Positions 21,957 through 39,301 of a DNA stretch of 64,000 nucleotides are shown here, one piece after another (the stretch's first letter is position 1; each line of letters starts with the position of its first letter). Origin of the DNA: Thermaurantimonas aggregans. Lineage in GTDB: Bacteria > Bacteroidota > Bacteroidia > Flavobacteriales > Schleiferiaceae. The stretch spans positions 1 through 64,000 of the forward strand of contig NZ_BHZE01000014.1 in assembly GCF_003851885.1 (NCBI RefSeq), written 5' to 3'. The notes beneath the pieces are model-generated. The model made no database searches. It was not told where the DNA came from and saw only the letters and a list, made by a program, of their open reading frames with translations. Position numbers and translations under genes: made by a program.

Positions 21957-22955
21957 TTATTTCAAGACAAAAACTCCGATAAGTCCTTTGCCAGTTTCAC
22001 GAATTTGGGCATATTCGAGCAGGTCGATGATGGCTCTGCTTGCTTCTTGCTTGCCAAGCTTATTGGCCATGATTTTTTGAATATCTGCCGTGGTGTATTC
22101 TCCTATCTGGACAGGCAAAAAGTGGTAATCGCCCTCCGGTAAAACGGAATTATTCAATCCCTGAAAAGAAGCTTTTTGTTCCAACGGAAAACCAACGTGA
22201 GCCTCGAGGGAATTTTCAGATTGTGAAGCTATGTAAATCACCAAATTTCCAAAAGGTTGTATGCCTTTATCGTTGAGTTTTTTTTCAATATCTCCACTAA
22301 TTTTCAAGGCATCTTCTAAAATGTTTTCAAAGGATGTATTGATCGGTTTATAAACAAAATATCGGGGTTGAAAACTGACGTCTTGCAGATATATGTTTCT
22401 GTAGGGATTTTTTTCGGCAAAATGCTGTTCGGCAAGTTGTTTTAGCTGAACTAATCCCTCATCGTAATCTTTACCAATGGCTTCTTCAAAATTTGAAAAG
22501 AGCAGCATCAGGTTAAAGGGACGGGGAATTTTTCCGGAGAAGCCCCAGGTTACAGCCACTACATTTTCAAATCGGGTATCAATAGCCAGCCACGAGCGAT
22601 TTTTTGTTTCAAAAGGTTGTTTAAATCGCACTTCAATGTCCACCCGATCAGGGCGAATGCTAAGGATTTCTTGTTCGCCTTCGCCTACCTGGTCATTGCC
22701 CTTCCAACGGTGCAAGCTACCCGGTGCACCATCTGTACCTTCAAACGATTCTACCAGCTTTGGGTCGCGCTTGTGCCAGGGCGACCATTTGCGCATTTCT
22801 TTCAAATTCGATATGAGCGGAAATACAGTTTCATAATCGGCATTGATCTCTACCGCGCGTTCTACGGTATATTCAGACTTTACGGCGAAGGAAACGCCAT
22901 AAATCACTACAATTGTCAGTATGATGAAATAAAGAACAAAGCGTGCGATTTTCAC
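21957..22955 (-). CDS. SRPBCC family protein with GyrI-like C-terminal domain
   Basis: A 332-residue protein. Residues ~5-25 are a membrane anchor. Residues ~33-175 form an SRPBCC (START-like) domain (EINADYETVFPLISNLKEMRKWSPW). The remainder (~185-332) resembles the GyrI-like/effector-binding fold (FVYKPINTSF ... GDYHFLPVQIGEY). Ligand unknown; probably binds hydrophobic small molecules. It lies just downstream of the CRISPR island on the same strand, with its own promoter element, and marks the backbone boundary. Confidence 0.82.
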   Translation of the reverse strand: MKIARFVLYFIILTIVVIYGVSFAVKSEYTVERAVEINADYETVFPLISNLKEMRKWSPWHKRDPKLVESFEGTDGAPGSLHRWKGNDQVGEGEQEILSIRPDRVDIEVRFKQPFETKNRSWLAIDTRFENVVAVTWGFSGKIPRPFNLMLLFSNFEEAIGKDYDEGLVQLKQLAEQHFAEKNPYRNIYLQDVSFQPRYFVYKPINTSFENILEDALKISGDIEKKLNDKGIQPFGNLVIYIASQSENSLEAHVGFPLEQKASFQGLNNSVLPEGDYHFLPVQIGEYTTADIQKIMANKLGKQEASRAIIDLLEYAQIRETGKGLIGVFVLK

Positions 22956-22978
22956 TGTAAGTAATTTTTCTAGCCCGC

Positions 22979-22986
22979 CAAAATTA
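22979..22986 (-). promoter_or_regulatory. Putative promoter -7 element of the SRPBCC gene
   Basis: TAATTTTG on the minus strand, 23 bp upstream of the ATG at 22955. A TTTG lies 16 bp further upstream as a possible, short-spaced -33 box. Confidence 0.5.
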
Positions 22987-23031
22987 TTAAGGATGTAGTA
23001 AACAAAGTCTAAGCGGCAAAGTAAGTTTAAA

Positions 23032-24522
23032 TTAAACTTCTCTTACAAAGGACACTTCAGTTACTTTGCCGTACTGCATCCTCGTAACTTTTACTTTATA
23101 CAGTTTTCCCAGAACAGCGCTGGCATAGCCATTCATATCAGCTTCTACAGTATTTGGTTCCTTCAAAAATACTTTTACACGCGATTTTCTGCCAATTGGG
23201 GAGCTAATACACTCTGCTATTAATTCAGTATTTAGCTTAATCTCATTACCCGTAAAGAATGGATTTAAAGAGGGTTTTTCGGGTTCGTTTCTAGGTTGTG
23301 TTTCGTCTTGAGGAATAGTAATGATTTCTTTTTTCTCAAAAGCTTTTTTTAGTTGATGGTCTAATGCGTGGTAGTATTCTGATTTTTCAATGGGCGTTAA
23401 TTTTATGTATCCCAGAGGCTTACCATCTGCAGTAATTCTTCTAGACTTTGGAAAAGGAAGCGAGTTATTATTAGTATTTCGATCAGTAATCCTTCTCACG
23501 TAAAGCGCTAGCTCTTCCTGGTCTGAGATAGATAGTAAATCTTCTTGCCAACCTCCGGTCATGTTTAAATAACCTGTTTGACCAGAAATTCTTAAAACAA
23601 ATGAATTTTTATCATAAAAAGATTCTTCGATTTTTTCAATGCTTTCTTGGTTATAATGATCAGTTTTGTCAAAAAACAACTCCTTATCCTTCTCAAAAAG
23701 TTTCTTAGTACGGTCCTTAGATATATTTAGTAACGATAGTAATTCCTCATTTTTATTCCGATCGATATTGTTTTCAACTTTATTTCTTTCAAACAGATTC
23801 TCATTCCACTTCATTTGAATGTAGAACTCTGTTTCCTCCGGTATGCATTCCAAAAAGGTTCTTAGGTCATCTCGTTTACTGAGGTTATCATCCTTTACTT
23901 CAACAGATAGAGTTTTCACAATGATAGATCTCTCAGCGTAACCATCAGAAATCAATAAGAAACGGAAAAAATCATGAGTAGCATAGTCGTTATTATTTTT
24001 AAATATTTTTTTATTGAAATTTCTGTCAGAATACTTTGGTTTATTATTATTTTTTAAGATATTAAAAGAATTCAGATTTAATCCACCTGTTGAATTGTAG
24101 ATTGATATTAAACTTTCAGAAAAAAAAGCGGTGCGTATAGCTCCTTTAATAGAGCTACCTGGAATCATTAAAAGACCATTACCTGATCGAAGGTGTTTTT
24201 TGATTTCTTCATCCAATCTAATTTCCTCGGTGGGTATTATTGTTTCACTTATGTCTTCTGGTTTAAAATTGGACTTTTTTTGTTTGAGTAAATTTCGCAG
24301 AGTTATTGCTTTTTCTTGTCTTGATTCTAAATTCATCAATGCATTCGACCATTGCTCAATAAATCGCTCGTCTAAATCAAATTTCTTAAACAAGATCTCC
24401 GGCTCAAGTATGGCTACAATTTTTCTTTCCGGAAAGTGCACATAATCAGCGCCAGGCGTTAAGGAAATTCCACTGCCAATAAAAATTGGGCTAAGAGTGG
24501 TAACCTTAAAATATTGAATCAT
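23032..24522 (-). CDS. csm5: Type III-A CRISPR RAMP protein Csm5
   Basis: A 496-residue RAMP protein of the III-A effector. The N-terminus TTLSPIFIGSGISLTPGADY and the glycine-loop motif MIPGSSIKGAIRTAFFSES (~115-135) are typical of Csm5, which caps the crRNA 3' end. It is longer than usual (most are ~350-420). The extra length is a Lys/Asn/Glu/Asp-rich central segment (~150-300). It is the last gene of the csm operon and overlaps csm4 by 4 bp. Confidence 0.9.
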   Translation of the reverse strand: MIQYFKVTTLSPIFIGSGISLTPGADYVHFPERKIVAILEPEILFKKFDLDERFIEQWSNALMNLESRQEKAITLRNLLKQKKSNFKPEDISETIIPTEEIRLDEEIKKHLRSGNGLLMIPGSSIKGAIRTAFFSESLISIYNSTGGLNLNSFNILKNNNKPKYSDRNFNKKIFKNNNDYATHDFFRFLLISDGYAERSIIVKTLSVEVKDDNLSKRDDLRTFLECIPEETEFYIQMKWNENLFERNKVENNIDRNKNEELLSLLNISKDRTKKLFEKDKELFFDKTDHYNQESIEKIEESFYDKNSFVLRISGQTGYLNMTGGWQEDLLSISDQEELALYVRRITDRNTNNNSLPFPKSRRITADGKPLGYIKLTPIEKSEYYHALDHQLKKAFEKKEIITIPQDETQPRNEPEKPSLNPFFTGNEIKLNTELIAECISSPIGRKSRVKVFLKEPNTVEADMNGYASAVLGKLYKVKVTRMQYGKVTEVSFVREV

Positions 24523-25601
24523 AGAATTTCAAATTTGAAATTGGCTGGGAAGAATATTGGTCGTCCATCTCTCCATACCGGATGCATGCGTTCGAATGCA
24601 TCACCGGGTAGTGCCTTTCGCAGGTCTTCGGTATCGGGCTTTAAGTCCACGCATTTACCGATTGGCTTATCATTTGTCGCTAAAAAACTGCCCTCTTCCA
24701 TCATGTAGATGGTTCGCTTTAGTTTGTTTCTGAGCTCTTCTGTGCCCGGGCTGCTGATGTAGCCCCCACGGCGAGTGATTTGGTAAGCAGATTGTTCCAA
24801 ATCAGCAAGTGTCAATTCTTCTCTTGTTGGGCAGTATTTTCCTAAAGCTACATATCCTATTGCACTCTTGGGAAGCTGTATCTCTAAATCCACAATGTCT
24901 TTGCTAGGGTCAAACTCAAACCATCCACCCCCCACAGAGCGATCGCTGCCAATGCCTTCATCAGCGAGCAAACGCAAGGCTGGTACTATCGTCTCATCGA
25001 GGGTTTTATCGTTTCCTTCATACAGAAAATACAATCCTATTTGCGAATGAAAATACCTGCGTCTGAAATAATAAGGGTCTCCTTGTTCGGTATAAATGGG
25101 GCCAATAGAAACGCGCTCGTCATCTGTCTCATACACAGGCTCACCCTCATAGGGTTTGGGATTCAGTTCGATATCCTTGGTAGTTAGAAATTTTTCAAAC
25201 AAGATTTTGTCTGAATCTGACAATTGCAGCTTACCCTCGGAGAGCAATTTTTCGTAGTAACCTTTATCTATCCACTGGATTTTTTTGGCTTTTTTTCGAT
25301 GTGTGATGTCGTCTGACTTGCCCAGATGAATCACACCCGGAAAGATAGGCCGTGGAAAAAACTGAACGTATGAATTTTGATGCTGTAGGAAGTAGAATGC
25401 TGAGGATACTTTAAAGGCATCCAGAAATTCCTTTACATCGCTTACAAGGTCAAGCGACAAGGCACAAGCTGCTAAAGCGCTCTTAATGGCATCGCTGCCC
25501 CAGAATTCTTGCATTTCGTCTTGCACGTCGTTGATCACGCCAATGTGTAGCGGTCCGTGAATGTGCAAGTGAATAGCCTTGTATGTTCTATTTTCGGTCA
25601 T
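24519..25601 (-). CDS. csm4: Type III-A CRISPR RAMP protein Csm4
   Basis: A 360-residue Cas5-like RAMP that holds the crRNA 5' handle next to Cas10. LHIHGPLHIGV near the N-terminus, IKSALAACALSL, RRYFHSQIGLYFLYEG and the LADEGIGSDRSVGGGWFEF glycine-rich segment fit Csm4. It sits between csm3 (39-bp spacer) and csm5 (4-bp overlap) in the standard III-A order. Confidence 0.92.
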   Translation of the reverse strand: MTENRTYKAIHLHIHGPLHIGVINDVQDEMQEFWGSDAIKSALAACALSLDLVSDVKEFLDAFKVSSAFYFLQHQNSYVQFFPRPIFPGVIHLGKSDDITHRKKAKKIQWIDKGYYEKLLSEGKLQLSDSDKILFEKFLTTKDIELNPKPYEGEPVYETDDERVSIGPIYTEQGDPYYFRRRYFHSQIGLYFLYEGNDKTLDETIVPALRLLADEGIGSDRSVGGGWFEFDPSKDIVDLEIQLPKSAIGYVALGKYCPTREELTLADLEQSAYQITRRGGYISSPGTEELRNKLKRTIYMMEEGSFLATNDKPIGKCVDLKPDTEDLRKALPGDAFERMHPVWRDGRPIFFPANFKFEIL

Positions 25602-25640
25602 ACGTTGCTATAATCAAAGGATTTTTTGGCCTGAGATGAA

Positions 25641-26384
25641 TTAAGAAACTGCCTGTGCCCTGAGCGATTCAGGAATTTCGATATCAAAATTTTTCTCGAG
25701 ATGTTTTATGGGATTCTTATAATATTCAGCACTGCGCTCTTTAATGGAGTCAATGGTAATTTTCACCCGACCGCTACCGCGCGAACCTTTACCACCCAAA
25801 TAATCGTCTTCTAAGAGCATCAGTCCACTGAAGATGGTATTTACATATTCTTTTTCGTCGTCTTTTACACCATTAGCTTCTCCTTCAAAAACATTAATTA
25901 CAATTTCAAGGGGAAACTCAGCACCTGCAGGAACGCGTTCGATTTGGCGTGGCATAGCAGCAGATGTGATTCGGTCAATCACCACTTCCATTTTTGTTTC
26001 TGTGTAGGGCATATCTGTATTTTGGAACTTTTCCGGATCATCCAAAATCTCAGCGTCTCTAAAAATTACTCTTGAGGGGCGTGGATTATTTGCTTCAGCT
26101 TTTCCAAAAAGTCGAGCAGAAATATTATTTACATCTGACGATGAAATCCATTTTACATTATTCATATCTGCTCTAACAATCGACCCATCTCTTACGTCAA
26201 TAAGACTTCTTATTTTTCCTTTTAGAGATGACCCTGGAATATAGGGTTTTCCACTGATGGGATTTCGTATCACAATATTATCCGGTGCACCAATGGAAAG
26301 TGGTGAAAATGTGCCACCTATTGTTAAACCACTTAAGGTTTTAATTTTACCGGTGATGATGATTTTTGAACGTAACTTTAACAT
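25641..26384 (-). CDS. csm3: Type III-A CRISPR backbone RAMP and target RNase Csm3
   Basis: A 247-residue Cas7-like subunit that forms the Csm filament and cuts target RNA every 6 nt. LSGLTIGGTFSPLSIGAPDN carries Asp35 at the position of the family's catalytic Asp, so RNase activity is expected. GSSLKGKIRSL (~52-62) and GGKGSRGSGRVKI (~200) are the RAMP glycine motifs. It lies 14 bp after csm2 in the operon. Confidence 0.95.
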   Translation of the reverse strand: MLKLRSKIIITGKIKTLSGLTIGGTFSPLSIGAPDNIVIRNPISGKPYIPGSSLKGKIRSLIDVRDGSIVRADMNNVKWISSSDVNNISARLFGKAEANNPRPSRVIFRDAEILDDPEKFQNTDMPYTETKMEVVIDRITSAAMPRQIERVPAGAEFPLEIVINVFEGEANGVKDDEKEYVNTIFSGLMLLEDDYLGGKGSRGSGRVKITIDSIKERSAEYYKNPIKHLEKNFDIEIPESLRAQAVS

Positions 26385-26398
26385 ATTCTTAAATTTTA

Positions 26399-26863
26399 TT
26401 ATTTTCCACCATAATATTTGTGATAAGCCAAGATGGCCTCAATGAGACTTACGAAATTTATAAAGTTTTTTTCTTCGGTTAGATTCACTTGTCTAAATAT
26501 ATTTTTTAAAGCATTATAGAATGTCTTTCCCGCGTTGCTATTACCTTCATTAGTTTTTCGAGCTGCGTTATAAGCAAGTTTTGGCCTTAAGAGTTGGATA
26601 TTTTGTTTATTCTTTTCTACTCCGTTTAATTGAATTCTTTTTAATTCACCGTAAAAATTTCTTAGTTGAGAAGTAGATAACTTTTCTCTTGTCGCGAGGT
26701 GCTCTCCAAATTTTTCACAGAATTTGTCTGCTTCTTTGTCCATTCCATTGGTAATCCATTCAGTTTTAACATTCCATTTCTCAGTCTGTTGATTTACTTC
26801 TTTTTTATTATTCGATTGATCTCTTTTTGGGTTAGGACTGTTTGAAGTGTTATTTGGTGCCAT
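26399..26863 (-). CDS. csm2: Type III-A CRISPR small subunit Csm2
   Basis: A 154-residue mostly helical protein. After an Asn/Ser-rich disordered N-terminus (~1-35), the Csm2 helices follow (LSTSQLRNFYGELKRIQ, LLRPKLAYNAARK, then FVSLIEAILAYHKYYGG). It lines the belly of the Csm complex. I placed the start at the ATG at 26863, 14 bp after the csm1 stop; an upstream GTG (26896) would overlap csm1. Position between csm1 and csm3 supports the call. Confidence 0.9.
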   Translation of the reverse strand: MAPNNTSNSPNPKRDQSNNKKEVNQQTEKWNVKTEWITNGMDKEADKFCEKFGEHLATREKLSTSQLRNFYGELKRIQLNGVEKNKQNIQLLRPKLAYNAARKTNEGNSNAGKTFYNALKNIFRQVNLTEEKNFINFVSLIEAILAYHKYYGGK

Positions 26864-26877
26864 GATATTAAAAAATT

Positions 26878-29463
26878 TTAGGTTAAACTTCTCCACTTAA
26901 ATTCAGCCAATCGACAAGCCACAGCGGCTAAGTCGAGGAAGGAGTTTCCGCTTCCGGAAATCAATTTTTCTCCAGCTTGGTTTGTAGAAATTCCGTTTAA
27001 AAATATTGAATAATCTCCAAATTTTATATAGCTATCTGTAAATGCACTCGTGTGAAAAGCTTGCAGAAATTCTCTTTGATTCTTATCACGTTCTATCATA
27101 CGACCGAAAGTGTATGCCAGCAACCATCGCCAGCTAACATTATCGGGTGTCAATTTTCTGTATTCGTAAAATGTCAACACTCTGGAAATAAAGGATTTGT
27201 TTAATTCACCATTCATCAGTTTAGAATAAATGGTTTTATAAAGGTGTTTTACCATTGGCCATTCGGTATCCCAATTCAGTGCAAATCCAAACACGGAAAG
27301 CGAATTTTTTTCTAACGATATTTCGCCATTAGATACTTTGTGTGATTTTGCATTTTTCTCTTCATTTTCTGCCAATTTAGCAAATCTTTTGGCTGGAAAT
27401 TTACCTTTCACGAATACAATTCCACCAGATATTGATAAATTGGGATTGTAGGCTGTATATTCTCTGAAATCATTTCGAATTATTTCTGCAATTTCAAGAA
27501 TAACGTCCCATTTCCCAAGTAAGAACAAATCATCGCCACCAGAATACAAAATGTAACAATCACTTTTGTGCGTTCCTACTAAATTATTTAAATATCCTTT
27601 AAAGAAAAAGTCCAAAGATCTACTCAGGGTTGCCAATCTACTAATGCTATGTTTTTTTCGTGAGAATCCATTTTTAAAAAGAGCTCCGAGATTGTCAACG
27701 TCCATCCTCAAAATTCCCAATCTCTTAAAGTCTCCCTCCCCTGCTAATTCATCAAATGTTTTGGGTTCCCCATCTTCATCAGCTGGATATGTATTTCCAC
27801 CATAAAATGTAAATCCTTTTATTACATTTCGTTCACTAAATAAAGGCACTAAAAAATCAGTAGCATTAAACAATAAAGATCTGCCGTTTTCTACGTGATT
27901 TCCTTTATAATAATATTTTTCATTTCGCTTTTCGATCAAAACACCTTTTTTGGTATAAGCACATTGAAAATCGAATTCAAAAAATTTCTCCTGACTGTTT
28001 ATACCTATATCTTCAGCTACTATTAATCCAGCACTATTTTTCAGTTGTCTTCCCAATTCAATTTGCAGTTGTGACTGTCGGCTTCTGTTCTTTCCAATCT
28101 TATTTTCTGGTTCAATTATATCGCCAGATATATCGTCAATATCATCAAATTTTGGTGCGATACCCGGTTCAAAGAATTTTGGATAAGCATCCTCAGAAAT
28201 AAACATTTTGTCGTATCGCTGCACTTTGTGGCGCTCTAATTTTTTATGCAGTTCGGTCCACTTGTCGGCAAGCGATGGTATGGAAATATCTTCTTGTTGT
28301 AGTAGATTTTTTGAGGTAATTTCTATGTAATCAATTGATATGAAAAGTCTTGTTCCAAAATTGTTAAATAACCATTCGTTTATTGTGGTGCGCAGTTCAT
28401 CTACTGTTTGTCGTACCTGTGCGGTGTTTGGGGCAAGAACATGAAATCCTCCTCCGCTATCGATGATTACATTACCTCGATACAATCCGGTTTTTTTCAA
28501 AAAGCAGTAGAGTACATTGTCTATGAGCCATTGTAGATAAAACGAGCGACCTTTAAGCGATTTGGCAGCATTTTTTGAAGATATGTTGTAAATAAAGGAC
28601 TGAATGCCACTGAGGTCAGCTCCAATCAAAAGAGCAAACGGTGTATCTATATCAGGCAGTTTTACATTGGGCTCATTAATGCTTTTATAGTTTTCTATTA
28701 AATAATCGTACAGACTAATGGCTAGTCCGGCACTGGTTCTCAAATGGTCGTAAAGCGACACATCGGGCAGGTCAACTGTGCTGGAGGGAATAAAGCGGGC
28801 ATGTTTTTCCAGCACGTAGGTGAAAGATTCAATCCATGTTTTTAGATCTGATTTGGTGTCGATAGACTTAATATCTCTGCTGAACGCCTGCCATACTTCA
28901 CTGTATTTTGGATCGTTTGTGAAAGAGTCCTTGTCATTGGAAAAACTCAATTCTTTAACTGCAGAGGCATCGAGGGCAGAGTTGTATTCAAATGGTTGTA
29001 TATCAAATCTGTGGATTCCCGAGTAATCGTCGGGTCGACTTACATATTCCATTACATTGTGCAGCCGGACTTTTTTGAAGCTTTTTTGTGTATTATCGTC
29101 GTTTTCGTTTATGGAATTTGACTTTATCCGATCCATGCCGCTGCTAAGCTTATCTGCCAAAGCAATGAGTTGTTCGTCGATTTTTCCTGGCTTATGGTGA
29201 GCGCAGGCAAGGCGCATCAGATTTAGGTCGTCAACTGTAAATTCAAGATTATTATTTTTTATAAACTGTGCAGTCCATAATACGTGAAGATGTGAATAGT
29301 AATTCCCTTGATTTGGGCAGTAAACGCTCTCAAGCTTACGAATTTCAGGCTCTAACAAACGCGTAGTTTTCATTCCATCTGGGTCAGCCCGTTGGAAGAA
29401 TTTTCCGATATCGTGTAATAACGCTGCTAAATAAACGATGTCTCTATCTGTAGCGTTTTTCAT
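26878..29463 (-). CDS. csm1: Cas10/Csm1, type III-A signature subunit
   Basis: An 861-residue Cas10. An N-terminal HD nuclease domain carries AALLHDIGKFFQ (His17-Asp18), for ssDNA cleavage. A first palm-like region follows (GADLSGIQSFIY ~285), and the active Palm polymerase has YSGGDDLFLLGKW at ~640-650 for cyclic oligoadenylate synthesis. Both active sites look intact, so target RNA binding should trigger DNA cleavage and second-messenger production. It overlaps cas6 by 4 bp upstream. Confidence 0.96.
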   Translation of the reverse strand: MKNATDRDIVYLAALLHDIGKFFQRADPDGMKTTRLLEPEIRKLESVYCPNQGNYYSHLHVLWTAQFIKNNNLEFTVDDLNLMRLACAHHKPGKIDEQLIALADKLSSGMDRIKSNSINENDDNTQKSFKKVRLHNVMEYVSRPDDYSGIHRFDIQPFEYNSALDASAVKELSFSNDKDSFTNDPKYSEVWQAFSRDIKSIDTKSDLKTWIESFTYVLEKHARFIPSSTVDLPDVSLYDHLRTSAGLAISLYDYLIENYKSINEPNVKLPDIDTPFALLIGADLSGIQSFIYNISSKNAAKSLKGRSFYLQWLIDNVLYCFLKKTGLYRGNVIIDSGGGFHVLAPNTAQVRQTVDELRTTINEWLFNNFGTRLFISIDYIEITSKNLLQQEDISIPSLADKWTELHKKLERHKVQRYDKMFISEDAYPKFFEPGIAPKFDDIDDISGDIIEPENKIGKNRSRQSQLQIELGRQLKNSAGLIVAEDIGINSQEKFFEFDFQCAYTKKGVLIEKRNEKYYYKGNHVENGRSLLFNATDFLVPLFSERNVIKGFTFYGGNTYPADEDGEPKTFDELAGEGDFKRLGILRMDVDNLGALFKNGFSRKKHSISRLATLSRSLDFFFKGYLNNLVGTHKSDCYILYSGGDDLFLLGKWDVILEIAEIIRNDFREYTAYNPNLSISGGIVFVKGKFPAKRFAKLAENEEKNAKSHKVSNGEISLEKNSLSVFGFALNWDTEWPMVKHLYKTIYSKLMNGELNKSFISRVLTFYEYRKLTPDNVSWRWLLAYTFGRMIERDKNQREFLQAFHTSAFTDSYIKFGDYSIFLNGISTNQAGEKLISGSGNSFLDLAAVACRLAEFKWRSLT

Positions 29464-30164
29464 GCAGATATTACTTTATCTTCTGTTTCTTTCTTCTTTT
29501 TTAACATCCGTAAGCTTCCAAAGCCGTGGCTTACTCCCTTTCCCAGTCCTAAGTAGTCGGGCATAAAGACGTTGGTGGTAAAGCGCACGTTGAATGCCTT
29601 CATTCCTACGCCTTTGTATTTGACCGATACTTCCTCAGGTAAATTGATGAATTTGACTTTTAGGGGTTTATCGATTTTCCAATCGATACCTTTGGCCATT
29701 GACAATATATTTCCGATCAGAATTTTTTCTAAAAATTCTATGCGCTCTCCTGCGCCTTCAATGGCATTGTATTTTTCATAATTCTCTTCATTGAGGGCAA
29801 GCCAGCGATTTATATAGTATTCAAAAGAATAATCCCAAACGTTAAAAGTAATTTGTCTGAGAATCAGGTCGTGTATTTTCAAGTGTAATTCTCGATCACT
29901 GATGGAAATTTTCCAGGAGGGTTGTTGAAAGAGATGTGTGATTTCGTCAGTTCCGTCGTCGATGCAGAAAATGGCAGCATTGCCTCGTACGGTTTTATAT
30001 TGAATTCCAGGATATTCGTAATAAAAACCACCTTCAGGTCGATGATTGTGAAAACCTATGTGCTCGAGACCTACTTTTTTAATAACCGCCCCTCTGAAGG
30101 CAGGTATTTCATGCGCAGCTATTTGATTCTGAAATACTACCAGTAGGGTGCGTACTTTTTTCAT
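29460..30164 (-). CDS. cas6: CRISPR pre-crRNA endoribonuclease Cas6
   Basis: A 234-residue RAMP. The C-terminal glycine-rich loop GKGVSHGFGSLRML is the Cas6 signature, and the rest has the two-ferredoxin-fold layout (FNVRFTTNVFMPDY). It is the only cas6 in the window, first in the csm operon, so it may supply crRNAs to both the Csm and Cmr complexes. A promoter element lies 30 bp upstream, and an inverted repeat CTACCAGTAG occurs inside its first codons. Confidence 0.88.
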   Translation of the reverse strand: MKKVRTLLVVFQNQIAAHEIPAFRGAVIKKVGLEHIGFHNHRPEGGFYYEYPGIQYKTVRGNAAIFCIDDGTDEITHLFQQPSWKISISDRELHLKIHDLILRQITFNVWDYSFEYYINRWLALNEENYEKYNAIEGAGERIEFLEKILIGNILSMAKGIDWKIDKPLKVKFINLPEEVSVKYKGVGMKAFNVRFTTNVFMPDYLGLGKGVSHGFGSLRMLKKKKETEDKVISA

Positions 30165-30193
30165 GGGTATTGTAAAGATATCTTAATTAATTG

Positions 30194-30201
30194 CAAATCT
30201 A
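30194..30201 (-). promoter_or_regulatory. Putative promoter of the cas6-csm operon
   Basis: TAGATTTG on the minus strand, 29 bp upstream of the cas6 ATG, in a 91-bp spacer after cmr6. It fits TAnnTTTG and suggests that the csm operon has its own promoter apart from the cmr operon. Confidence 0.55.
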
Positions 30202-30239
30202 TAGTAAAAGTAAAAAATTTCCTTTCACATATTCAATAC

Positions 30240-30249
30240 CTACTGGTAG
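30240..30249. promoter_or_regulatory. Inverted repeat CTAC-TG-GTAG upstream of cas6
   Basis: CTACTGGTAG with flanking AC...GT giving 6-bp arms. A second site, CTACCAGTAG, lies at 30137-30146 within cas6. The two centres are 103 bp apart and bracket the promoter element at 30194-30201. Possible operator pair; no regulator is known. Confidence 0.3.
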
Positions 30250-30255
30250 GTTTTT

Positions 30256-31395
30256 TCACAGTTGTTTCATGTATCCATATCCTACAGCAGTTTTTGCACC
30301 GATGCCGCGTTCTTGTAGAGCTTCTTTGAGAAAGCCTGAAGTTACCGAAAGCATATCCCCCCTTTTTGCCCCTAACTTGATATTTTCATTCTCCACGCCT
30401 TTGCGCAAGCCTACCATAAATTGAAAAGTGAGGTTTTCAACGGTAAGGAAAATGATAGGCACGGGGCTTTGATAATCCGCAGGCGGTTGAAATTTCGGGC
30501 TATTTACATCATATTCATAATAATTCGGATAGTGAGGATTCATTATATCCGCTTTGATGCAACCTTGCGGGCTGTGGGTGGGGTAGGCATCAAAGAATAT
30601 AATATCTCCTTCCTTTTCAGTAATTTCAGGAAAGCGATATTTTGATAAATCTTTCCCAAATTCGCGCTTATCTTCATCAAAACAACGTTTGTAAAAAGTA
30701 GTCATCCGTCTTTTTTGACCGTTTTCCTCATATATTGTTTCTTCTCCACATCCAAAAATGTCACACATTTCTTTTGAGTTGTGAAATAATAAGGCTTCAC
30801 TATTTGCCTTATTACCTTGCAAAGTTGTAATCATATAACTTCTCAATACGCCTTTAATTGCGCTTGCAGGGATATAAGGAAATCCATACACGTGATGTAA
30901 CGAAATAGACGTTTCAAACACAGAGCCGCTACCCAAACCTACGGTTAATCGCCAGTCGGGTTGGAATTGCAGTTCATTCTTCTGCTTGTTGTCATACACT
31001 TTGGGCAATAAATTACCGCCTGTGAGTTGCAAAGCGTTGTGATGATGGCGAGCGATGAAACGTTGGTAAAAAGGTGTTTTTTGCCAACCTTTTTCTTCTT
31101 TTTCAAAAATATCAATTATAGAAACATCTTCAAGTCTATTCTTTTTACCCGCAGTCTTTTCAACTACTTTTTCAACATTAATCTTCTTGATAACAAATTT
31201 CTTTCTGTCTTTGTCATCTTCGTTGTTTACCCTCTGAGTTTCCGTCCAAAACCTCTTCCTTTTATGCAAAAAAGAATAGAAGTTTTGGGCGGTTTCCTGT
31301 GACGAAACATTTTTAACTTCTCTTTCTATGCCCATAAGTTTACCTAAATCCTGTAAAGAGTTGGCCGTTTGTTGCCTCTTGTCTTGCTTTGCCAT
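30256..31395 (-). CDS. cmr6: Type III-B CRISPR RAMP protein Cmr6
   Basis: A 379-residue Cas7-like subunit that caps the Cmr complex near the crRNA 3' end. The GLGSGSVFETSISLHHVYG region (~170) and PYIPASAIKGVLRSY (~190) are Cmr6 hallmarks, and GAKTAVGYGYMKQL closes the protein. The first ~110 residues are a charged Lys/Glu-rich extension not needed for the core fold. It is the last gene of the cmr operon, with its ATG 2 bp after the intended stop of cmr5. Confidence 0.92.
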   Translation of the reverse strand: MAKQDKRQQTANSLQDLGKLMGIEREVKNVSSQETAQNFYSFLHKRKRFWTETQRVNNEDDKDRKKFVIKKINVEKVVEKTAGKKNRLEDVSIIDIFEKEEKGWQKTPFYQRFIARHHHNALQLTGGNLLPKVYDNKQKNELQFQPDWRLTVGLGSGSVFETSISLHHVYGFPYIPASAIKGVLRSYMITTLQGNKANSEALLFHNSKEMCDIFGCGEETIYEENGQKRRMTTFYKRCFDEDKREFGKDLSKYRFPEITEKEGDIIFFDAYPTHSPQGCIKADIMNPHYPNYYEYDVNSPKFQPPADYQSPVPIIFLTVENLTFQFMVGLRKGVENENIKLGAKRGDMLSVTSGFLKEALQERGIGAKTAVGYGYMKQL

Positions 31396-31397
31396 AG

Positions 31398-31826
31398 TTA
31401 TTCTGATTTAGCGAACCTACGTAACCAATTGAACAAGGCTAATACTTCAGTGGTGCATTGGATTAAGTCCTTTGCCGTTGCTGAAGTTGTTAGATGTGTC
31501 ATCAGTTGCTCGTCAGTATTTGGATTGAGTGAAAGCAAGCCATATTATGAATGTGTAAGCCATTCGCGGATATTTTTTAAAACCTCGCCATTTTTTCCGC
31601 TACCTTTCTTAGAGTACAAAAAAGCCAAAGTGTTTAATAATCCATTGGTTTTGATATAAGTGGGTACTTTATCAACAATGGCACTATACTCGTCTTTTGC
31701 CTTCTTTTTACGTTTTTTATCTTCTTCGCTGTCAGTTTCAAGCGAATTGTATTTACTCGCACACTCCCACGCAAATTTTGCTCTTGCCTGGGCGATGCTT
31801 TTCATGGTTGATAGATTGTTAGGCAT
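31398..31826 (-). pseudogene. cmr5: cmr5 (type III-B small subunit), interrupted by an in-frame stop
   Basis: The first 93 residues (AQARAKFAWECASKY ... VPTYIKTNGLLNTLAFLYSK ... NIREWLTHS) are clearly the helical small subunit Cmr5. A TAA at 31545-31547 then stops translation. Past it the same frame stays open for 48 codons and encodes the family's expected C-terminal helix (TEVLALFNWLRRFAKSE), ending at 31398, 2 bp before cmr6. A one-base change in TAA would restore a normal 142-residue Cmr5. So this is a recent nonsense mutation or a base error in the sequence. A re-start at the ATG 17 codons past the stop could give a 34-residue C-terminal piece. It overlaps cmr4 by 8 bp. Confidence 0.88.
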
Positions 31827-32847
31827 TTTCTACCTCCTTCTCTTTTTCAGTTAAAAATTTAGTTCTCACAATTCCTTTGCCTAGGGTAGCGTTGCCGCCG
31901 ATTTGGACAATGTTGGGTATTTCTTCAAAAAACGTTTTTACGTCTGCTGCTGTCATGCGATCTTCTCTTGATGAAAATTCATCTGAAAACATCACCAACG
32001 AATACATCACGCTTTCGGCGGGCAGGTATTCTTCGCTGAACAATGCCCCTTGCTGTACCGTACCCGTTTCGTTGTTGATTTTGGTGCGGGTAATGACTTC
32101 GGTAGCAAGGGTTACAAAGTCGCGGAAATTTTCATCTGAAAGAATAATGATGTCTTTTTCCATTTTCGTAGCCCAATAACTTGTATCAGTGGCAGAAAAG
32201 ATATTTTCTTTCAACCATTTAGCTAACTTATCTACATTACCGTTGGCTGTATCTTTGGTAAGTGTAAAAACAAATTCTTCTAAATAGGCTTGTTGCTTAC
32301 TGTTGTTATTTTTTAGAATTTCTGCTTTTGAAGTGGTTTTATCTTCCTCTGTGTTAAAATCATCCGCAGAAAAACTGGTTGTAATCCTCGCCAACTCCAA
32401 ATCCGCAATAAACTTCTTAATTACCCTTGGGCAGGTAATCCACGCAAATACGCCGTACAAGGACTTGACGGGAAACAACAACAAACGGGCATCGGTTATC
32501 GAAATACAACCAGAAAATTGTGAATTTTCTTTGAAAGTTTCTTTTAAAAATTCTTTTGCTGAAAAGCGTTTTTTCACATCAAATCCCAATTCTCCATCAT
32601 CATAACCAAAAGCTTTGTTGATGGTGATTAGGTTACTTTTTGCTTTGCTATCGTCTTTTTCAGACAATACTAATTTACTTTCAAAAGCCTCTCGTAAAGC
32701 ACCTTTGAGCGATGAGGCTTCTATTTTTGGGAAATTGGTGTGCCTTTCGCGTTGGATAGGCAAATCTACGATACCCAGATCTGAGCCGCTGCCTACGTGC
32801 AGGGGTGTTTCGCAGATAAGAAATAAAGGTCTGGCATTTTTGTACAT
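31819..32847 (-). CDS. cmr4: Type III-B CRISPR backbone RAMP and target RNase Cmr4
   Basis: A 342-residue Cas7-like backbone subunit. The N-terminus CETPLHVGSGSDLGIVDLPI matches Cmr4, with Asp28 in VDLPIQRE at the catalytic position, so target RNA cleavage is expected. IEASSLKGALREAFE and NATLGKGIVRTKF are the glycine-loop motifs. It lies 49 bp after the CARF nuclease gene inserted in the operon and overlaps cmr5 by 8 bp. Confidence 0.94.
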   Translation of the reverse strand: MYKNARPLFLICETPLHVGSGSDLGIVDLPIQRERHTNFPKIEASSLKGALREAFESKLVLSEKDDSKAKSNLITINKAFGYDDGELGFDVKKRFSAKEFLKETFKENSQFSGCISITDARLLLFPVKSLYGVFAWITCPRVIKKFIADLELARITTSFSADDFNTEEDKTTSKAEILKNNNSKQQAYLEEFVFTLTKDTANGNVDKLAKWLKENIFSATDTSYWATKMEKDIIILSDENFRDFVTLATEVITRTKINNETGTVQQGALFSEEYLPAESVMYSLVMFSDEFSSREDRMTAADVKTFFEEIPNIVQIGGNATLGKGIVRTKFLTEKEKEVENA

Positions 32848-32896
32848 AGTGTTTTATGGTTTTAGTGTTTTAGGACAGGATTTCAGGGTTTATGGA

Positions 32897-34261
32897 TTAT
32901 GTTAAGATAATATCTATCAATTGAGAATCTTTAATATCTGATTTGAAAAAGTCTTGATAAATATGTCTTTCTTGACTTTGCTTACTTTTTTGTATTTTTA
33001 GAAATTTACATTTGAAGTCAATATTCATATCAAATCTTTCTTTCAATTGCATTACTGTTTCCACATTGACACTATTTTCACTTTCACCATAAAGAATTAA
33101 CCATATTTCGTTAATGTTTTCTAAGGATTTAACCCTACTAGGAAAATGCGCTAACAAATGTGTCCAACTATCATAAGTATTTTCCAATACGGAAGCAGGT
33201 TTTACTTCAATACCAATTTTAGAAGTTTCATTTGGCTTTATGACCAAATCGATATCGCCACCATCTTTAGTTTTTACACTATGCTTTACCTTATTACAAT
33301 CAAATTTTGTTTGGTAATATTTGTACAGTTTATATTCTACAAAATAACCCATAATAGTACCTGTTAACGGACTTGCTTTATCTTTAAGATACTCACTTAA
33401 AATTATTCCTAAAGGCGTTAGTTTGGTATTATCCTTAAACACCAAATTAAGTTCACGCATTTCTTCAACATCTTTTAGATATTTTATATTATTTCTTTTA
33501 TTTTCATTAAACAACAAAATTGTATATTTTTCAATTATTTCCCAATCAAAACCAACGGGCATTGGGGGCAAATGAATAATCTCTGAACTGTCTTCATATA
33601 AATAGTAAATTGACAAGTGATATAACTGTGCTAAAATTGTAATGGGTGGTATTAAGGCTTTATAGCCACCTGTAATATTAAGTAAAGTGTTTTCTGAACC
33701 CGCGGTAGAAGTAATAATTTTAATTTTTTCAATAAGGTTTAGCAGACCTTGTTCTGAATATTTTTTTAGGTTAAGATTTTTTATAATATGGGCTGACGAA
33801 AAGTTATGGTCTTTTATTTTTTCAATGATGGTAGCATTTTCAGCAACTTCTTCAAAGGCTACCGTATAACCTTTCCTTCTCAAATACCCCGCTATCACCT
33901 CTGCACACAAAGGCGACAAAATGGTATCGGTGCAAAGTAGGTGAATGGTTAAGGTTAATTCTTCGCCTTCTTTCAACGATTTTCTTAATTCCTTTTCAAT
34001 GGCGGTAATGCTGCTGATTTCGGCGCAGTTGGATTTTGCATTTAAATATTCTATCAGTAATTGAAGAATCCCTCTTTCGCCATATTCGCCCTTTACATAA
34101 TTGATATAACTATCTGCGGTTGTGCCTGAATTTTCAAAAAAAGAGCATTTTTCAAGTTCTCTCAGTTGTTCTCTAATTTCATCTGTAAGTCCATAATTAT
34201 TGGTTTCTTTCCAATTAGAAATTAAAGAAGTGCCAACAGTAGTAAGGATAGTTTTATTCAT
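32897..34261 (-). CDS. CARF-PD-(D/E)XK nuclease within the cmr operon
   Basis: A 454-residue predicted cyclic-oligoadenylate-activated nuclease. Residues ~1-215 are a CARF domain of the APE2256 kind, with TTVGTSLISN at the N-terminus and the ligand-site motif LLNITGGYKALIPP (~195). A linker with possible winged-helix character follows. Residues ~300-420 carry a PD-(D/E)XK core, GGDIDLV (~335) and IGIEVKPAS (~348). Binding cOA would switch on DNA and/or RNA cleavage. It sits between cmr3 (5-bp spacer) and cmr4, so it is made with the complex. The exact family and substrate are unsure. Confidence 0.82.
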   Translation of the reverse strand: MNKTILTTVGTSLISNWKETNNYGLTDEIREQLRELEKCSFFENSGTTADSYINYVKGEYGERGILQLLIEYLNAKSNCAEISSITAIEKELRKSLKEGEELTLTIHLLCTDTILSPLCAEVIAGYLRRKGYTVAFEEVAENATIIEKIKDHNFSSAHIIKNLNLKKYSEQGLLNLIEKIKIITSTAGSENTLLNITGGYKALIPPITILAQLYHLSIYYLYEDSSEIIHLPPMPVGFDWEIIEKYTILLFNENKRNNIKYLKDVEEMRELNLVFKDNTKLTPLGIILSEYLKDKASPLTGTIMGYFVEYKLYKYYQTKFDCNKVKHSVKTKDGGDIDLVIKPNETSKIGIEVKPASVLENTYDSWTHLLAHFPSRVKSLENINEIWLILYGESENSVNVETVMQLKERFDMNIDFKCKFLKIQKSKQSQERHIYQDFFKSDIKDSQLIDIILT

Positions 34262-34266
34262 CGTGC

Positions 34267-35343
34267 TCAGTTGTTTGGGGTTGTACCAATGTAAAATTTT
34301 CCGAAACCTTGTTTTTCAAAGCCTTCAATTTCGTTGAAAGGATTATTTTGGTACAAGTGCTCAAATACTTGCTGAGGATTTTTTGCTTTAAGGTAGTACA
34401 CACTTCCCGCAGGAACTGCTTTGTACATCGGTTTGGGTGCTTGCTTTGCCATATCAAACCCACCTGCAAACAGGGGTTTTCCTATTGCATAAGTGAGTAG
34501 TTCAAAATCATTGGAATTGAGAAAAGCCTTTGGGCAGTAGCCATTTTCTAAAATTGCAGGTGTATTTAGATAAACCCTTAAAATATCAGACTTTAAATTC
34601 TCAGTTTTTAAATGAAGATTAGGTACTTGACTTTGGTCAATATGTTTATAAAAGACAGATTTGTTTTCACCTCCAAAACGAACTATACCTGTATCATCGA
34701 GAGTTAAGTTTTCGTATTCAACGGCTATTTTCAATTTATTTTTTTCAGCATTATCAAGCCTTTGCATATTCACCCTATACATTTTGCCTTCGGCTTCACC
34801 TGATGTTGTACGGCTGTTATTATCCCGTCCTATGCCGATTTTAGGCTCAGAAGTGATGTATTTTGAAAGCGAATCGGCAAAAATTTCACTTTCGTTATAG
34901 TTTAAGTAATGCACAAAACGATTTTTCGATAAAATTCCCTTGTTCAGTTCGTCTACCTTTTTGCGTAGCGGTGTGTATAAAATTTCTGGACATTCATTAG
35001 AGCCTGTATTGAAAGGTTCACGTTTTAAGAAATAGATTTTTTTTGCCTCGTTTTCGTCTTTGTCTTTGAATTTTACTAAATCCAAAGGCATTGTAAAATA
35101 GGGTGTATTATCAATTAACAGGTAAATGTTGTGAAGTATAAAATTTTTTGTATTTTCTATAACCTGTGTTGGGTCTGTAATGCCTTGTTGAAACATATAC
35201 GCACTACGCAAAGCCCCATAAATTACCGAAGGCAATGGCGGAAAAATACCGTCAGCCCATACATCTTCCCCCATAGAAAAAGGCTTGCCGTCTCTGAAAA
35301 ACAGTGTATCTATTGCCTCAATATGTATCGTTTTTTTAGTCAT
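34267..35343 (-). CDS. cmr3: Type III-B CRISPR RAMP protein Cmr3
   Basis: A 358-residue Cas5-like RAMP that anchors the crRNA 5' tag against Cmr2. EAIDTLFFRDGKPFSMGED and FPPLPSVIYGALRSAYM at the N-terminus are Cmr3 signatures. The C-terminal GFDMAKQAPKPMYKAVPAGSVYYL is also typical. It overlaps cmr2 by 8 bp and precedes the CARF nuclease gene by 5 bp. Confidence 0.94.
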   Translation of the reverse strand: MTKKTIHIEAIDTLFFRDGKPFSMGEDVWADGIFPPLPSVIYGALRSAYMFQQGITDPTQVIENTKNFILHNIYLLIDNTPYFTMPLDLVKFKDKDENEAKKIYFLKREPFNTGSNECPEILYTPLRKKVDELNKGILSKNRFVHYLNYNESEIFADSLSKYITSEPKIGIGRDNNSRTTSGEAEGKMYRVNMQRLDNAEKNKLKIAVEYENLTLDDTGIVRFGGENKSVFYKHIDQSQVPNLHLKTENLKSDILRVYLNTPAILENGYCPKAFLNSNDFELLTYAIGKPLFAGGFDMAKQAPKPMYKAVPAGSVYYLKAKNPQQVFEHLYQNNPFNEIEGFEKQGFGKFYIGTTPNN

Positions 35344-37123
35344 TGCCTTGCAGTTTCCGGTTGATAAAATCGCAAATACTTAGTGAAGCATTGAAGTTTT
35401 TGATATTGCGTTTGTTCGGTTCATAGACTTGCATTACTTTTTTAGCCATTTCTTTTGCTTCCTCTTTGGTGGCTTTGTTTTTGGCTCGCAACACAAGTCG
35501 CTCAATTTCAAAATTCATAATTTGAATAATTCTGGTATCTTCGTTCTCTGCCAATAGTTCCATTTCACTTTGCAAAACCGTAATGTAATTGCTGCTGAAA
35601 TGTGTTTCCAAACCCTCTCTTACTTCTCTCATCAGTTCTGAGTACCAAATGTCTTTGCCGTCTTTCATTGCTCTAAACGGTAAAACCGCTTTATGTATCT
35701 CGCCCGATTTTTTGAGTACAGCGATACCGAAACTGTCTTTAGTATCGGTATCTTTAGCTTCTTTTTCCATTCTTCTTGCCCAGTTTAGAACTTCCGTGAG
35801 GGGTGTTTTGTAGTGAGCAATGGCAATGCCTGCCGAAAAGGTCATTTCTTTGTTGTCTGTAATTTGAAACCTGCCATCAGAAATTTTATCACTGACTTGT
35901 GCTTTAAACTGTTCTCGCAGATGCTTCATTACTTCAAAGAGGTAGTGCAAATTCACAAAGCCCAGATAATCATCGCCACCTGCATACACAGTGCGACCTT
36001 TTTTAGTTGTATCAGCACCTAAGCCATCTACATAATTTTTAGCGTAGTCGGCAAAGCTCGAAAGCAAGCCAGAGAGGTGTTTGTGAAAATCGCGTAATTT
36101 ATTTTCCCGGTCAGAGAGGTATTCGCCCGAAAGCCAAGCCCCCATACTGTCGGCATCAAAAAGCAGGATAGCGTAGTATTTGGTGAATTTTAAGCCTTTT
36201 TTTCTGAGTGCATCACGCAGTTTTTTATGGGCTTTTTGGGCAATTTCTAATTGTTGCTTGCAGGGAATATTTTTTGAAGTGAGATTTTCATCATAAAAGA
36301 ACTGTTCATTGAATTGTGTCCAATCTTTTCCTTCTAACTTCAAGCATTTTTCTTGTTCTGCTGCTTTCAAAATATCAAAGATGTCTTCAAAATCTTGAAA
36401 TGCTTTCGGGGCTTCTTGAATGCTTTTGAGTAAGGCAATATCTGTGGTAGAATCAAACGACTTTTTTTTACTGTCAAACGGATAAAATCTTTTGATAAAA
36501 GAAATGGCGGACAAGCCCTCCTTATCATCTATCATATCGCTTTTGATTTGTGCGACATTGGTAGCAAAAGAAGGTAAGGGGGCTCCGTTAAACACCAACG
36601 CATTTTGCTCACCACTCAGAGAGCATTTACGTCCTTGTTCGGGGTATTGGGTGAAGGTACGTGCGTTTTTGACCGCCCCGAGCAATCGGTCTGCATTGTC
36701 GTAGGCGGCTGCATAGTTGTTGTTTTCAACCGGTACGAACACCCAAAAAGTAGAAAAATAGTCTTTGAGTTGGGCTTCAAAGGCTGTTTTGATTTTGGCG
36801 TATTCGGTTGTGCCGATTTTGGTTTCGGCTTTTAGCCTCAAAACTTCTAACTCATCCGCAACGGATTTGGCTATTTTTTTACCCAAGTCTTTTAGTTCTT
36901 GGTCTGTTTTGCTAAAACTGAAAAAAGCCAATAGGCGGTTAGGCATTGACTTGGATATTTTGGAAGGGAAGATAATAGTTCCGCCTTCTCGCGTAATAGC
37001 CTCATATACTTTGCCTACAAAAGCCGAAAGCATACGACTCCCCGCCCACAAATCTTGTGTTTTGCGTGCCTGCGAGATAAAACTCTGCACGGGCGTAAGA
37101 GTGAAAAGGAACAGGTGGGTCAT
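35336..37123 (-). CDS. cmr2: Cas10/Cmr2, type III-B signature subunit, without HD domain
   Basis: A 595-residue Cas10. It begins directly at the first palm (LFLFTLTPVQSFISQARKTQ), which in Cmr2 proteins with an HD domain comes after ~200 residues; no HD nuclease is present. The active Palm has VYAGGDDYLGFVN at ~380-390, and FSAGIAIAHYKTPL follows. So it should make cyclic oligoadenylate but not cut ssDNA. It overlaps cmr1 and cmr3 at its ends. Confidence 0.95.
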   Translation of the reverse strand: MTHLFLFTLTPVQSFISQARKTQDLWAGSRMLSAFVGKVYEAITREGGTIIFPSKISKSMPNRLLAFFSFSKTDQELKDLGKKIAKSVADELEVLRLKAETKIGTTEYAKIKTAFEAQLKDYFSTFWVFVPVENNNYAAAYDNADRLLGAVKNARTFTQYPEQGRKCSLSGEQNALVFNGAPLPSFATNVAQIKSDMIDDKEGLSAISFIKRFYPFDSKKKSFDSTTDIALLKSIQEAPKAFQDFEDIFDILKAAEQEKCLKLEGKDWTQFNEQFFYDENLTSKNIPCKQQLEIAQKAHKKLRDALRKKGLKFTKYYAILLFDADSMGAWLSGEYLSDRENKLRDFHKHLSGLLSSFADYAKNYVDGLGADTTKKGRTVYAGGDDYLGFVNLHYLFEVMKHLREQFKAQVSDKISDGRFQITDNKEMTFSAGIAIAHYKTPLTEVLNWARRMEKEAKDTDTKDSFGIAVLKKSGEIHKAVLPFRAMKDGKDIWYSELMREVREGLETHFSSNYITVLQSEMELLAENEDTRIIQIMNFEIERLVLRAKNKATKEEAKEMAKKVMQVYEPNKRNIKNFNASLSICDFINRKLQGND

Positions 37124-38144
37124 AGTCGCTCAAGATTTAATTTTTCTTGAAGTTTTTCATTGAACTTTTGAGTTGCGGCATCAAATTTTTCTAATACATC
37201 TGTAGGAATAGACTTGCCTTTTTTCAAATTTTCATTGCCTATACCTGACACATACTTATAGGGAACAAATAAGATGTACCCCCTGTATCCTCCATTTTCT
37301 TCATCTAAAAATAAAAAATATGATTTTGAGTGTCTTTCTAAGAAAGAATTACTATCTTGTACGATAGGTGCGGCTATGTATCTCCTTGTATTATAAGTAT
37401 GCCCGTCACCCATATTTTTCCTTGCATGAATATAAGCATCGCCAATGATTTTTAGCGCATTATCGTAAGAACGACTGCTAACTTCTTTTGCACTAAAAAG
37501 CTTTACTGAATCTGAAAGGCTTGTATAATTAGATTTTGAATTATTCGTTTTTAGCAAATTTTTCCATTTTGGTAAACTTTGAGTTATATCTATCTCATTA
37601 TTTTCTTTGTTTTCTACCGCTTTAATAATTTTTATTTTTCCAAAACCATTTCTACTCTTAGCCCCCAATCCGCCTACATAACACATTACTACAAAAGCTT
37701 TAATTACTTCATCCACTTTTGTTTCATTTGTAAATCTTAGACAGATGTCAAACCTTTGTCTTTCATCAAAAAAAGCATGTGTAAATCTGTCACGATAATC
37801 ATAAACACCGTAAGCAAGATAATTCAAGATATTAACAGGCGTATTTCTTGAAAGTGGATAGTTTCCCCTATGTTCAGGGAATTTGTCTTTAGTGCTTGGC
37901 TTTAAAAAATTTTTATCTTTTGGGCAAGTAATCACCACCTTACTCCTCTGAGCAGGTTCAGTCCCCCCAAAAATCTCGCTTTCTTTTGCTTCAATTCTTC
38001 AAGGCTCAAATGCCCGTTCATCGCTCGCCACCAAAATCTCAATGCTCCCTTGATGGATGGTGGTCTCAATTCAGGTACCCTTTGGTCTGCTCCCGAAAGG
38101 AACATTGGTGTGATGGTTTCGCAAGTGAAGGTGATTGTTTTCAT
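37120..38144 (-). pseudogene. cmr1: cmr1 (type III-B RAMP), disrupted by a -1 frameshift
   Basis: The first part reads MKTITFTCETITPMFLSGAD ... PSIKGALRFWWRAMNG, a clear Cmr1 N-terminus, but runs to a TGA at 37932. Moving to the next frame at an A-run (T4 on the plus strand, 37984-37987) restores ESEIFGGTEPAQRSKVVITC and the rest of Cmr1 (GGLGAKSRNGFGKIKI and on to 37120). One missing A would explain the break: with it the gene is exactly 342 codons. This may be a real mutation, tRNA slippage at A-AAG, or an assembly error. The downstream GTG at 37938 is probably not a true start. It is first in the cmr operon and its stop overlaps cmr2. Confidence 0.88.
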
Positions 38145-38237
38145 TCTCTGCAATGATTGAGCGTATATTCTTTATTTTGATTTAATATTTACATAACTCA
38201 TCACAAAAATTATTTTAAAAATCAAATTTTGCAATAT

Positions 38238-39278
38238 TTATTTTTCGGTATTTTCTATGATTCGCGTGTAGCGGTGTAGCATTTTCATGCTTTCGAGCAT
38301 GATTTGTTTTCGAAAATGATCAGGGCTTAAGATCTCAATCTGGCCGCCAAAAGACAATAATTGATTTTTCAACTCTTGATTGATGATGACTTGTAGTTGT
38401 ATCTCGGCACCGTTTTCACTTTCTGATTTCTGAATAATTTTTTGGCTTTGATGGATGGGCTTGGTTCGAATGTAAGGCAATACATTTTTATCAACCCATA
38501 TTCGTATTTTCTCCGGAGTTGCACCTTCAGGGCGCGTCACGCCTACTATGTCTTCAAAATACTCCGTGAAATCGATTTCCGTATTTGGCATGGCTTCCTT
38601 TGTGCTCAGTTCATATGATTCTATTCGATCCACAGCCAGATTCATAATTCTGAGCTCCGGCCGGTGCATGGCTTTGCCAAATACGAACCAGCGGCCGTTA
38701 TAATGGCGCATATGCCAGGGATGAAATTCAAATTGCTGCTTTTCGTCGGTGAAGGGTGCATAGAGTACATCTGCTTTTAGACCTTTCAGCACCGAGTACA
38801 CGATTTTAGGAACGAGTTTTACATTGTGGTAATCTACATTTAAGTCGTAGGTGATTTTATTGTACTGTTTAGCGACGCGTTCTTCGCGCAATTCGGTTAG
38901 GGCAGTAAGTTTTTCAAAGATGTCAGCATCTATTATGGCTTTGAAGTCGCCCAAAGTACTGAAGTAGAGTCGATAGAGCTCTTTGTCGCGTTCGCTGAGC
39001 TGTCGGGTCCAAGAAGCATTTTCTTGAATGTCTGGACTAGCAATTTTGTAGATGATTCTTCGGCCTTTTCGCACTTTATCGACCACGATTTCACCGCCTT
39101 TCTCGATTTCTTCGATGTCGTTGTAGAAAGTCCGGCGGGTGATGGGTTGATAGCCATTTCGCATGAGCCAGGTATTGATTTGTTCGACCACATCCTCTAC
39201 GCAGTATTCGTGAAAAGGGTGCTGAAGTATTTCGACAATCTTCTGCTGACGCTTAAACGCTGGATAAGTTTCTGCCAT
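38238..39278 (-). CDS. WYL-domain transcriptional regulator
   Basis: A 346-residue regulator. Residues ~8-75 are a winged helix-turn-helix (ITRRTFYNDIEEIEKGGEIV). Residues ~150-220 are a WYL-type ligand domain (LKADVLYAPF ... HPWHMRHYNGRWFVFG), and a WCX-like C-terminal part follows. WYL proteins often control CRISPR and other defence operons and may bind nucleic acid or nucleotide ligands. It lies 93 bp upstream of cmr1 on the same strand and is divergent from the HNH cassette. Two abutting palindromes in its promoter (39302-39329) suggest autoregulation. Confidence 0.88.
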   Translation of the reverse strand: MAETYPAFKRQQKIVEILQHPFHEYCVEDVVEQINTWLMRNGYQPITRRTFYNDIEEIEKGGEIVVDKVRKGRRIIYKIASPDIQENASWTRQLSERDKELYRLYFSTLGDFKAIIDADIFEKLTALTELREERVAKQYNKITYDLNVDYHNVKLVPKIVYSVLKGLKADVLYAPFTDEKQQFEFHPWHMRHYNGRWFVFGKAMHRPELRIMNLAVDRIESYELSTKEAMPNTEIDFTEYFEDIVGVTRPEGATPEKIRIWVDKNVLPYIRTKPIHQSQKIIQKSESENGAEIQLQVIINQELKNQLLSFGGQIEILSPDHFRKQIMLESMKMLHRYTRIIENTEK

Positions 39279-39301
39279 ACTGGTTGATTTTATGTTTTTG
39301 T

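What the first reader, a model, noticed from the sequence alone, without database searches (positions are those of the whole stretch)
31398..31826. cmr5 has a single in-frame stop, with its C-terminal helix preserved downstream
After TAA at 31545-31547 the same frame stays open for 48 codons and encodes the family's final helix (TEVLALFNWLRRFAKSE), ending exactly 2 bp before cmr6. This is a clean nonsense lesion, not a different short protein. Annotation pipelines would report a deceptively normal 93-residue ORF.
Basis: seen in the sequence. Interest (0 to 1): 0.65.

Follow-up and report, generated by a model that had tools for sequence, protein, structure and literature searches.

The report
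Recently broken cmr5 CRISPR gene
One gene of a bacterial RNA-targeting CRISPR system carries a premature stop codon (and a neighbouring gene of the same system a frameshift), so this copy of the system is probably newly dead while a second, intact one sits beside it: an ordinary decayed gene pair, correctly spotted.

Summary
On the minus strand cmr5 runs 31826→31398. It has a TAA at 31547-31545 after 93 codons, then 48 open codons ending 2 bp before the cmr6 ATG (31395). The tail on its own matches the C-terminal third of Pfam Cas_Cmr5 (31 bits, E 3e-7). All four close relatives encode an intact Cmr5; two of them align GAA (Glu) at the stop position. Of 30 cmr5 copies found in a 395-genome phylum sample, only this one has an internal stop. 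The genome has no second cmr5. The tail is still conserved (dN/dS about 0.07), so the lesion is young or, less likely, bypassed.

The other four cmr genes, the CARF effector, cas6 and the adjacent csm1-5 operon are open. A homology check of about 0.5 Mb of the same genome found no other broken gene, so a generally error-ridden assembly is unlikely. Best reading: recent inactivation of a type III-B Cmr module beside an intact type III-A module, which is ordinary gene decay. Read support at both sites could not be tested.

The parts
31548..31826 (-). cmr5 head, 93 codons (four of the six predicted helices)
   Evidence: helix map of intact relative L002
31545..31547 (-). premature TAA (codon 94); the relatives L002 and L003 align GAA here
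31398..31544 (-). orphaned cmr5 tail, 48 codons plus native TAA; carries the last two helices, conserved LIQCTTEVLALFNWLRRFAKSE
37120..38144 (-). cmr1, broken by a frame change between 37998 and 37972 (N part 38144-37932, C part read in another frame to 37120)
35336..37123 (-). cmr2 (cas10), 595 aa, full length, GGDD present, no HD domain found
34267..35343 (-). cmr3, open
32897..34261 (-). CARF (Cas_APE2256) protein with a C-terminal region that resembles a PD-(D/E)XK nuclease; open
   Evidence: for CARF; nuclease resemblance read by eye from the sequence
31819..32847 (-). cmr4, open, ATG/stop overlaps cmr5 start
30256..31395 (-). cmr6, open, starts 2 bp after native cmr5 stop
29460..30164 (-). 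cas6 (Cas6b domains), open
23032..29463 (-). csm1-csm5 (type III-A) operon, all five genes open; Csm1 with HD and palm domains, Csm2 small subunit intact

Best explanation
The type III-B Cmr module of this genome has been inactivated recently. cmr5 acquired a nonsense codon and, independently, cmr1 a frameshift. From the shortened cmr5 the cell would make at most a 93-residue Cmr5 lacking the last two of six helices, which should not stack properly as the small-subunit filament (inferred). Without full Cmr1 the complex would also lack its crRNA 3'-end/target-binding cap (inferred from published Cmr biochemistry). The remaining cmr genes have not yet decayed. Loss is probably tolerated because an intact type III-A Csm operon and a shared cas6 lie directly next to it (inferred).
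For: Stop and homologous tail. Intact Cmr5 in all four relatives, GAA at the stop position in two. No internal stop in the other 29 copies of the phylum sample. No second cmr5 or cmr1 in the genome (99.93% complete). cmr1 frame change with open homologues in L003 and L004. Tail conserved, dN/dS 0.07 over 48 codons against L002, so the stop is young. Stop falls in the loop after helix 4; helices 5 and 6 are lost: and the model matches solved Cmr5 chains over its whole length. Csm operon and its small subunit intact. No other broken gene among the roughly 150 homology-covered ORFs of 0.5 Mb checked.
Against: Only one genome of the species is at hand and there are no reads, so neither lesion is verified. 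The tail shows no relaxation of constraint, which also fits an assembly error or a bypass. In P. furiosus Cmr5 was dispensable for RNA cleavage in vitro (review PMC3890593), so the cmr5 lesion alone might not abolish activity.
Confidence: 0.8

Rival explanations
1. Sequencing or assembly error: cmr5 and cmr1 are intact in the organism.
For: Draft of 57 contigs. The tail is as conserved as a working gene. The cmr1 change lies in an A-rich stretch. Both are single-base-scale differences.
Against: Completeness is 99.93% with 0.07% contamination, and no other broken gene was found in a 0.5 Mb homology check, so an error-rich assembly is unlikely. A substitution and an indel are different error types, yet both fall in one operon.
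Confidence: 0.1
2. The truncated or split Cmr5 still works: the 93-residue head, with or without a separately started tail peptide (in-frame TTG at 31538 or ATG at 31502), supports a Cmr complex.
For: Cmr5 was dispensable for RNA cleavage by P. furiosus Cmr in vitro (PMC3890593). Tail under constraint. In-frame start codons exist shortly after the stop.
Against: Cmr1 is broken too, and it is described as crucial for target RNA binding (PMC7214462). No split or truncated cmr5 in the other 29 copies of the phylum sample. No ribosome-binding context for restart was tested or is evident. The tail is needed for the conserved last helix.
Confidence: 0.07
3. The stop is read through (recoding) so that full-length Cmr5 is made at low level.
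For: Same frame and conserved tail.
Against: TAA followed by T is a strong termination context in model bacteria (own knowledge). TAA ends ordinary genes here, including cmr5 itself. No sign of the stop in relatives.
Confidence: 0.03

Closest known systems
Cmr5 small subunit (Cas11 family) of type III-B CRISPR-Cas, Pfam PF09701 / TIGR01881
   Same: Head and tail together cover profile positions 2-118 of 119; gene order cmr4-cmr5-cmr6 with 2-bp spacing; the fold of an intact relative matches solved Cmr5 chains 9arw_F, 3x1l_F and 2oeb.
   Different: Premature stop removes helices 5 and 6.
Cmr5 of Bernardetiaceae MAG SKYG123 (L002), and of L003, L004, L005
   Same: Up to 73-76% identity in the best segments; near-identical tail with L002.
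   Different: All four are intact through the stop position; L002 and L003 align GAA there.
Decayed cas genes in multi-system genomes (general phenomenon)
   Same: One interference module acquires disabling lesions while another stays intact.
   Different: Nothing distinctive; two lesions of different kinds in one operon, apparently young.

Membership tests
Cmr5 (PF09701 / TIGR01881) | Sequence match above curated cut-off | tested here: met
   Read through: 91.8 bits vs 21 (Pfam), 52 vs 27.9 (TIGR01881). Head alone 56.6 and 40.2 bits.
Cmr5 (PF09701 / TIGR01881) | Position between cmr4 and cmr6 in a Cmr operon | tested here: met
Cmr5 (PF09701 / TIGR01881) | Uninterrupted frame through the C-terminal helix | tested here: not met
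   TAA at 31547-31545; all relatives uninterrupted
Pseudogene by nonsense mutation | Homologous sequence continues in frame after the stop, and relatives have a sense codon there | tested here: met
Pseudogene by nonsense mutation | Stop present in the organism's reads and in other isolates | not testable with these tools
   No reads; one genome per species; the one same-genus genome (70% complete) has no cmr5 match
Pseudogene by nonsense mutation | Relaxed constraint after the lesion | tested here: inconclusive
   dN/dS 0.07 over 48 codons vs L002, i.e. no relaxation yet seen; low power
Functional type III-B Cmr complex | Open cmr1, cmr2, cmr3, cmr4, cmr5, cmr6 | tested here: not met
   cmr1 frameshifted, cmr5 interrupted; no second copies

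The most novel reading that the evidence does not exclude
The Cmr module is kept in a reduced form: head-only or split Cmr5 and a Cmr1 made by frameshifting form a variant complex, or the operon persists mainly to supply its CARF effector to the intact Csm complex, whose Cas10 has an intact palm domain.
Probability: 0.06. Interest if true: 0.55.

Novelty: already known. Interest (0 to 1): 0.2.

Why it matters
It is a clear example of how one of two neighbouring type III CRISPR modules may be lost: two small, apparently recent lesions hit a Cmr module while the adjacent Csm module stays intact. In practice it warns that automatic annotation would count this genome as having a complete III-B system, because the 93-residue cmr5 head and the larger cmr1 pieces still match family models or sit in the right place. 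It does not change how Cmr systems are understood.

Tried and rejected
A codon-usage scan for broken genes in 0.46 Mb of the genome had too little power: it did not flag cmr5 or cmr1, and the candidates inspected were neighbouring genes or antisense frames. It was replaced by a homology scan with relatives' proteins, in which both known lesions served as positive controls. Viral contigs gave no Cmr5 relative. A CRISPR array for the type III modules was looked for in the window and beside cas1 and not found. The pattern at the C5 contig end proved to be a repeat flanking cas1-cas2, not an array. The organism was not identified. Raineya and Schleiferia were considered; kinship (same order contains a 0.3 Mb complete genome), size and G+C point towards a Schleiferia-like Flavobacteriales member, but no tool could confirm it. 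A literature search found no report of this lesion.

Full report
Observation. The sequence on the minus strand from 31826 to 31398 reads as one Cmr5 interrupted by TAA at 31547-31545. 93 codons precede the stop and 48 follow it before the native TAA. cmr6 starts 2 bp later at 31395. The open tail is not chance in itself evidence: 17 of 119 long open segments in the window are followed by at least 48 open codons. What counts is homology. The isolated tail matches Cas_Cmr5 positions 80-118 at E 3e-7 and the head positions 2-74 at E 3.6e-15.

Relatives. Four named contigs encode close Cmr5 homologues. All are intact across this point. L002, a Bernardetiaceae MAG, and L003 align GAA to the stop codon; L004 aligns ACA in a region of weaker similarity. 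In 395 genomes of the phylum 30 cmr5 matches were found; only the window's has an internal stop. The window's genome (G000, 2.67 Mb, 57 contigs, 99.93% complete) has no other Cmr5.

Age. Against L002, the 48 tail codons have 4 nonsynonymous and 12 synonymous differences (dN/dS about 0.07), like the cmr5 head (0.13) and cmr6 (0.08). So the tail evolved as a coding sequence for nearly all of the time since the two lineages parted. That means a young stop, or one that is not real or not effective. The counts are small.

Structure. The intact L002 protein was predicted with six helices (mean pLDDT 84.7, five-sequence alignment): 2-22, 29-45, 47-56, 67-80, 94-103, 107-129. The stop corresponds to its residue 83, in the loop after helix 4, so helices 5 and 6 are lost, including the most conserved stretch of the tail. 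The model matches solved Cmr5 chains over its whole length (9arw_F, 3x1l_F, 2oeb, 4gkf), and phmmer aligns the tail to the C-terminal helix of the same chains. That the truncated protein cannot fold or stack is inferred, not shown.

A second lesion. The first-stage note did not mention cmr1. Its N-terminal part reads in one frame from ATG 38144 and stops at 37932. The part homologous to the rest (KESEIFGGTEPAQRSKV...) lies in another frame and continues to 37120. The frame change lies between 37998 and 37972 in an A-rich run. L003 and L004 have an open cmr1 there. A search of the genome with the L004 protein found only these two pieces. Published work holds Cmr1 crucial for target RNA binding (PMC7214462), and places it with Cmr6 at the crRNA 3' end (PMC5965380). 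Cmr5 by contrast was dispensable for cleavage in vitro in P. furiosus (review PMC3890593). So the cmr1 lesion is, if anything, the more disabling of the two.

What stays intact. cmr2, cmr3, cmr4, cmr6, the CARF protein between cmr3 and cmr4, cas6, and csm1 to csm5 are open and match their families; Csm2, the Csm small subunit, is single-copy and intact. A type III-A complex could therefore replace the Cmr complex in defence. This is inferred.

Error control. If the assembly were full of errors, other genes should be broken. Proteins from 1.2 Mb of three same-family genomes were compared with 0.5 Mb of G000. 167 ORFs of G000 were hit, some of them antisense shadows. The only internal stops or frame changes in a gene's own frame were those in cmr5 and cmr1 (found with the relatives' Cmr proteins, used as positive controls); the others lay at natural gene ends, upstream of the true start, or in antisense frames. 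This argues against generally poor sequence but does not verify the two sites.

Verdict. The finding is real as described and its interpretation is supported: a nonsense-interrupted cmr5. With the cmr1 frameshift it is best read as recent inactivation of a Cmr module next to an intact Csm module. This is a familiar kind of event. Read support is the one decisive thing missing.

Noticed in passing
window 37120-38144 (-), break at 37972-37998: cmr1 of the same operon is frameshifted; single copy in the genome; relatives L003 and L004 are open.
   Followed up: yes
window 32897-34261 (-): CARF (Cas_APE2256) protein with a C-terminal region that looks like a PD-(D/E)XK nuclease, between cmr3 and cmr4; homologues lie at the same place in L003, L004 and L005. 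Could be served by the Csm complex if Cmr is dead.
   Followed up: partly
window 31398-31544 vs L002: The cmr5 tail is closer to L002 at synonymous sites (dS 0.50) than the cmr5 head (1.50) or cmr6 (1.23), perhaps a small recombination tract.
   Followed up: no
L062 16660-16860 and 19800-20000 (G000:C5), L127 (G000:C45): A roughly 200-bp sequence flanks the cas1 - 347-aa protein - putative cas2 cluster on both sides and recurs at the end of contig C45; possibly a mobile or recombining unit.
   Followed up: partly
L063 9180-9543 (G000:C17): Five-copy repeat array with about 75-bp spacing near a second cas1; looks like a short CRISPR array of a different type.
   Followed up: no
window 22000-39300: The Cmr genes' closest relatives found are in Cytophagales or Bernardetiaceae MAGs, while the 59 relatives of the window's own order that were searched have no close Cmr5 match, suggesting horizontal transfer of the module.
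   Followed up: partly
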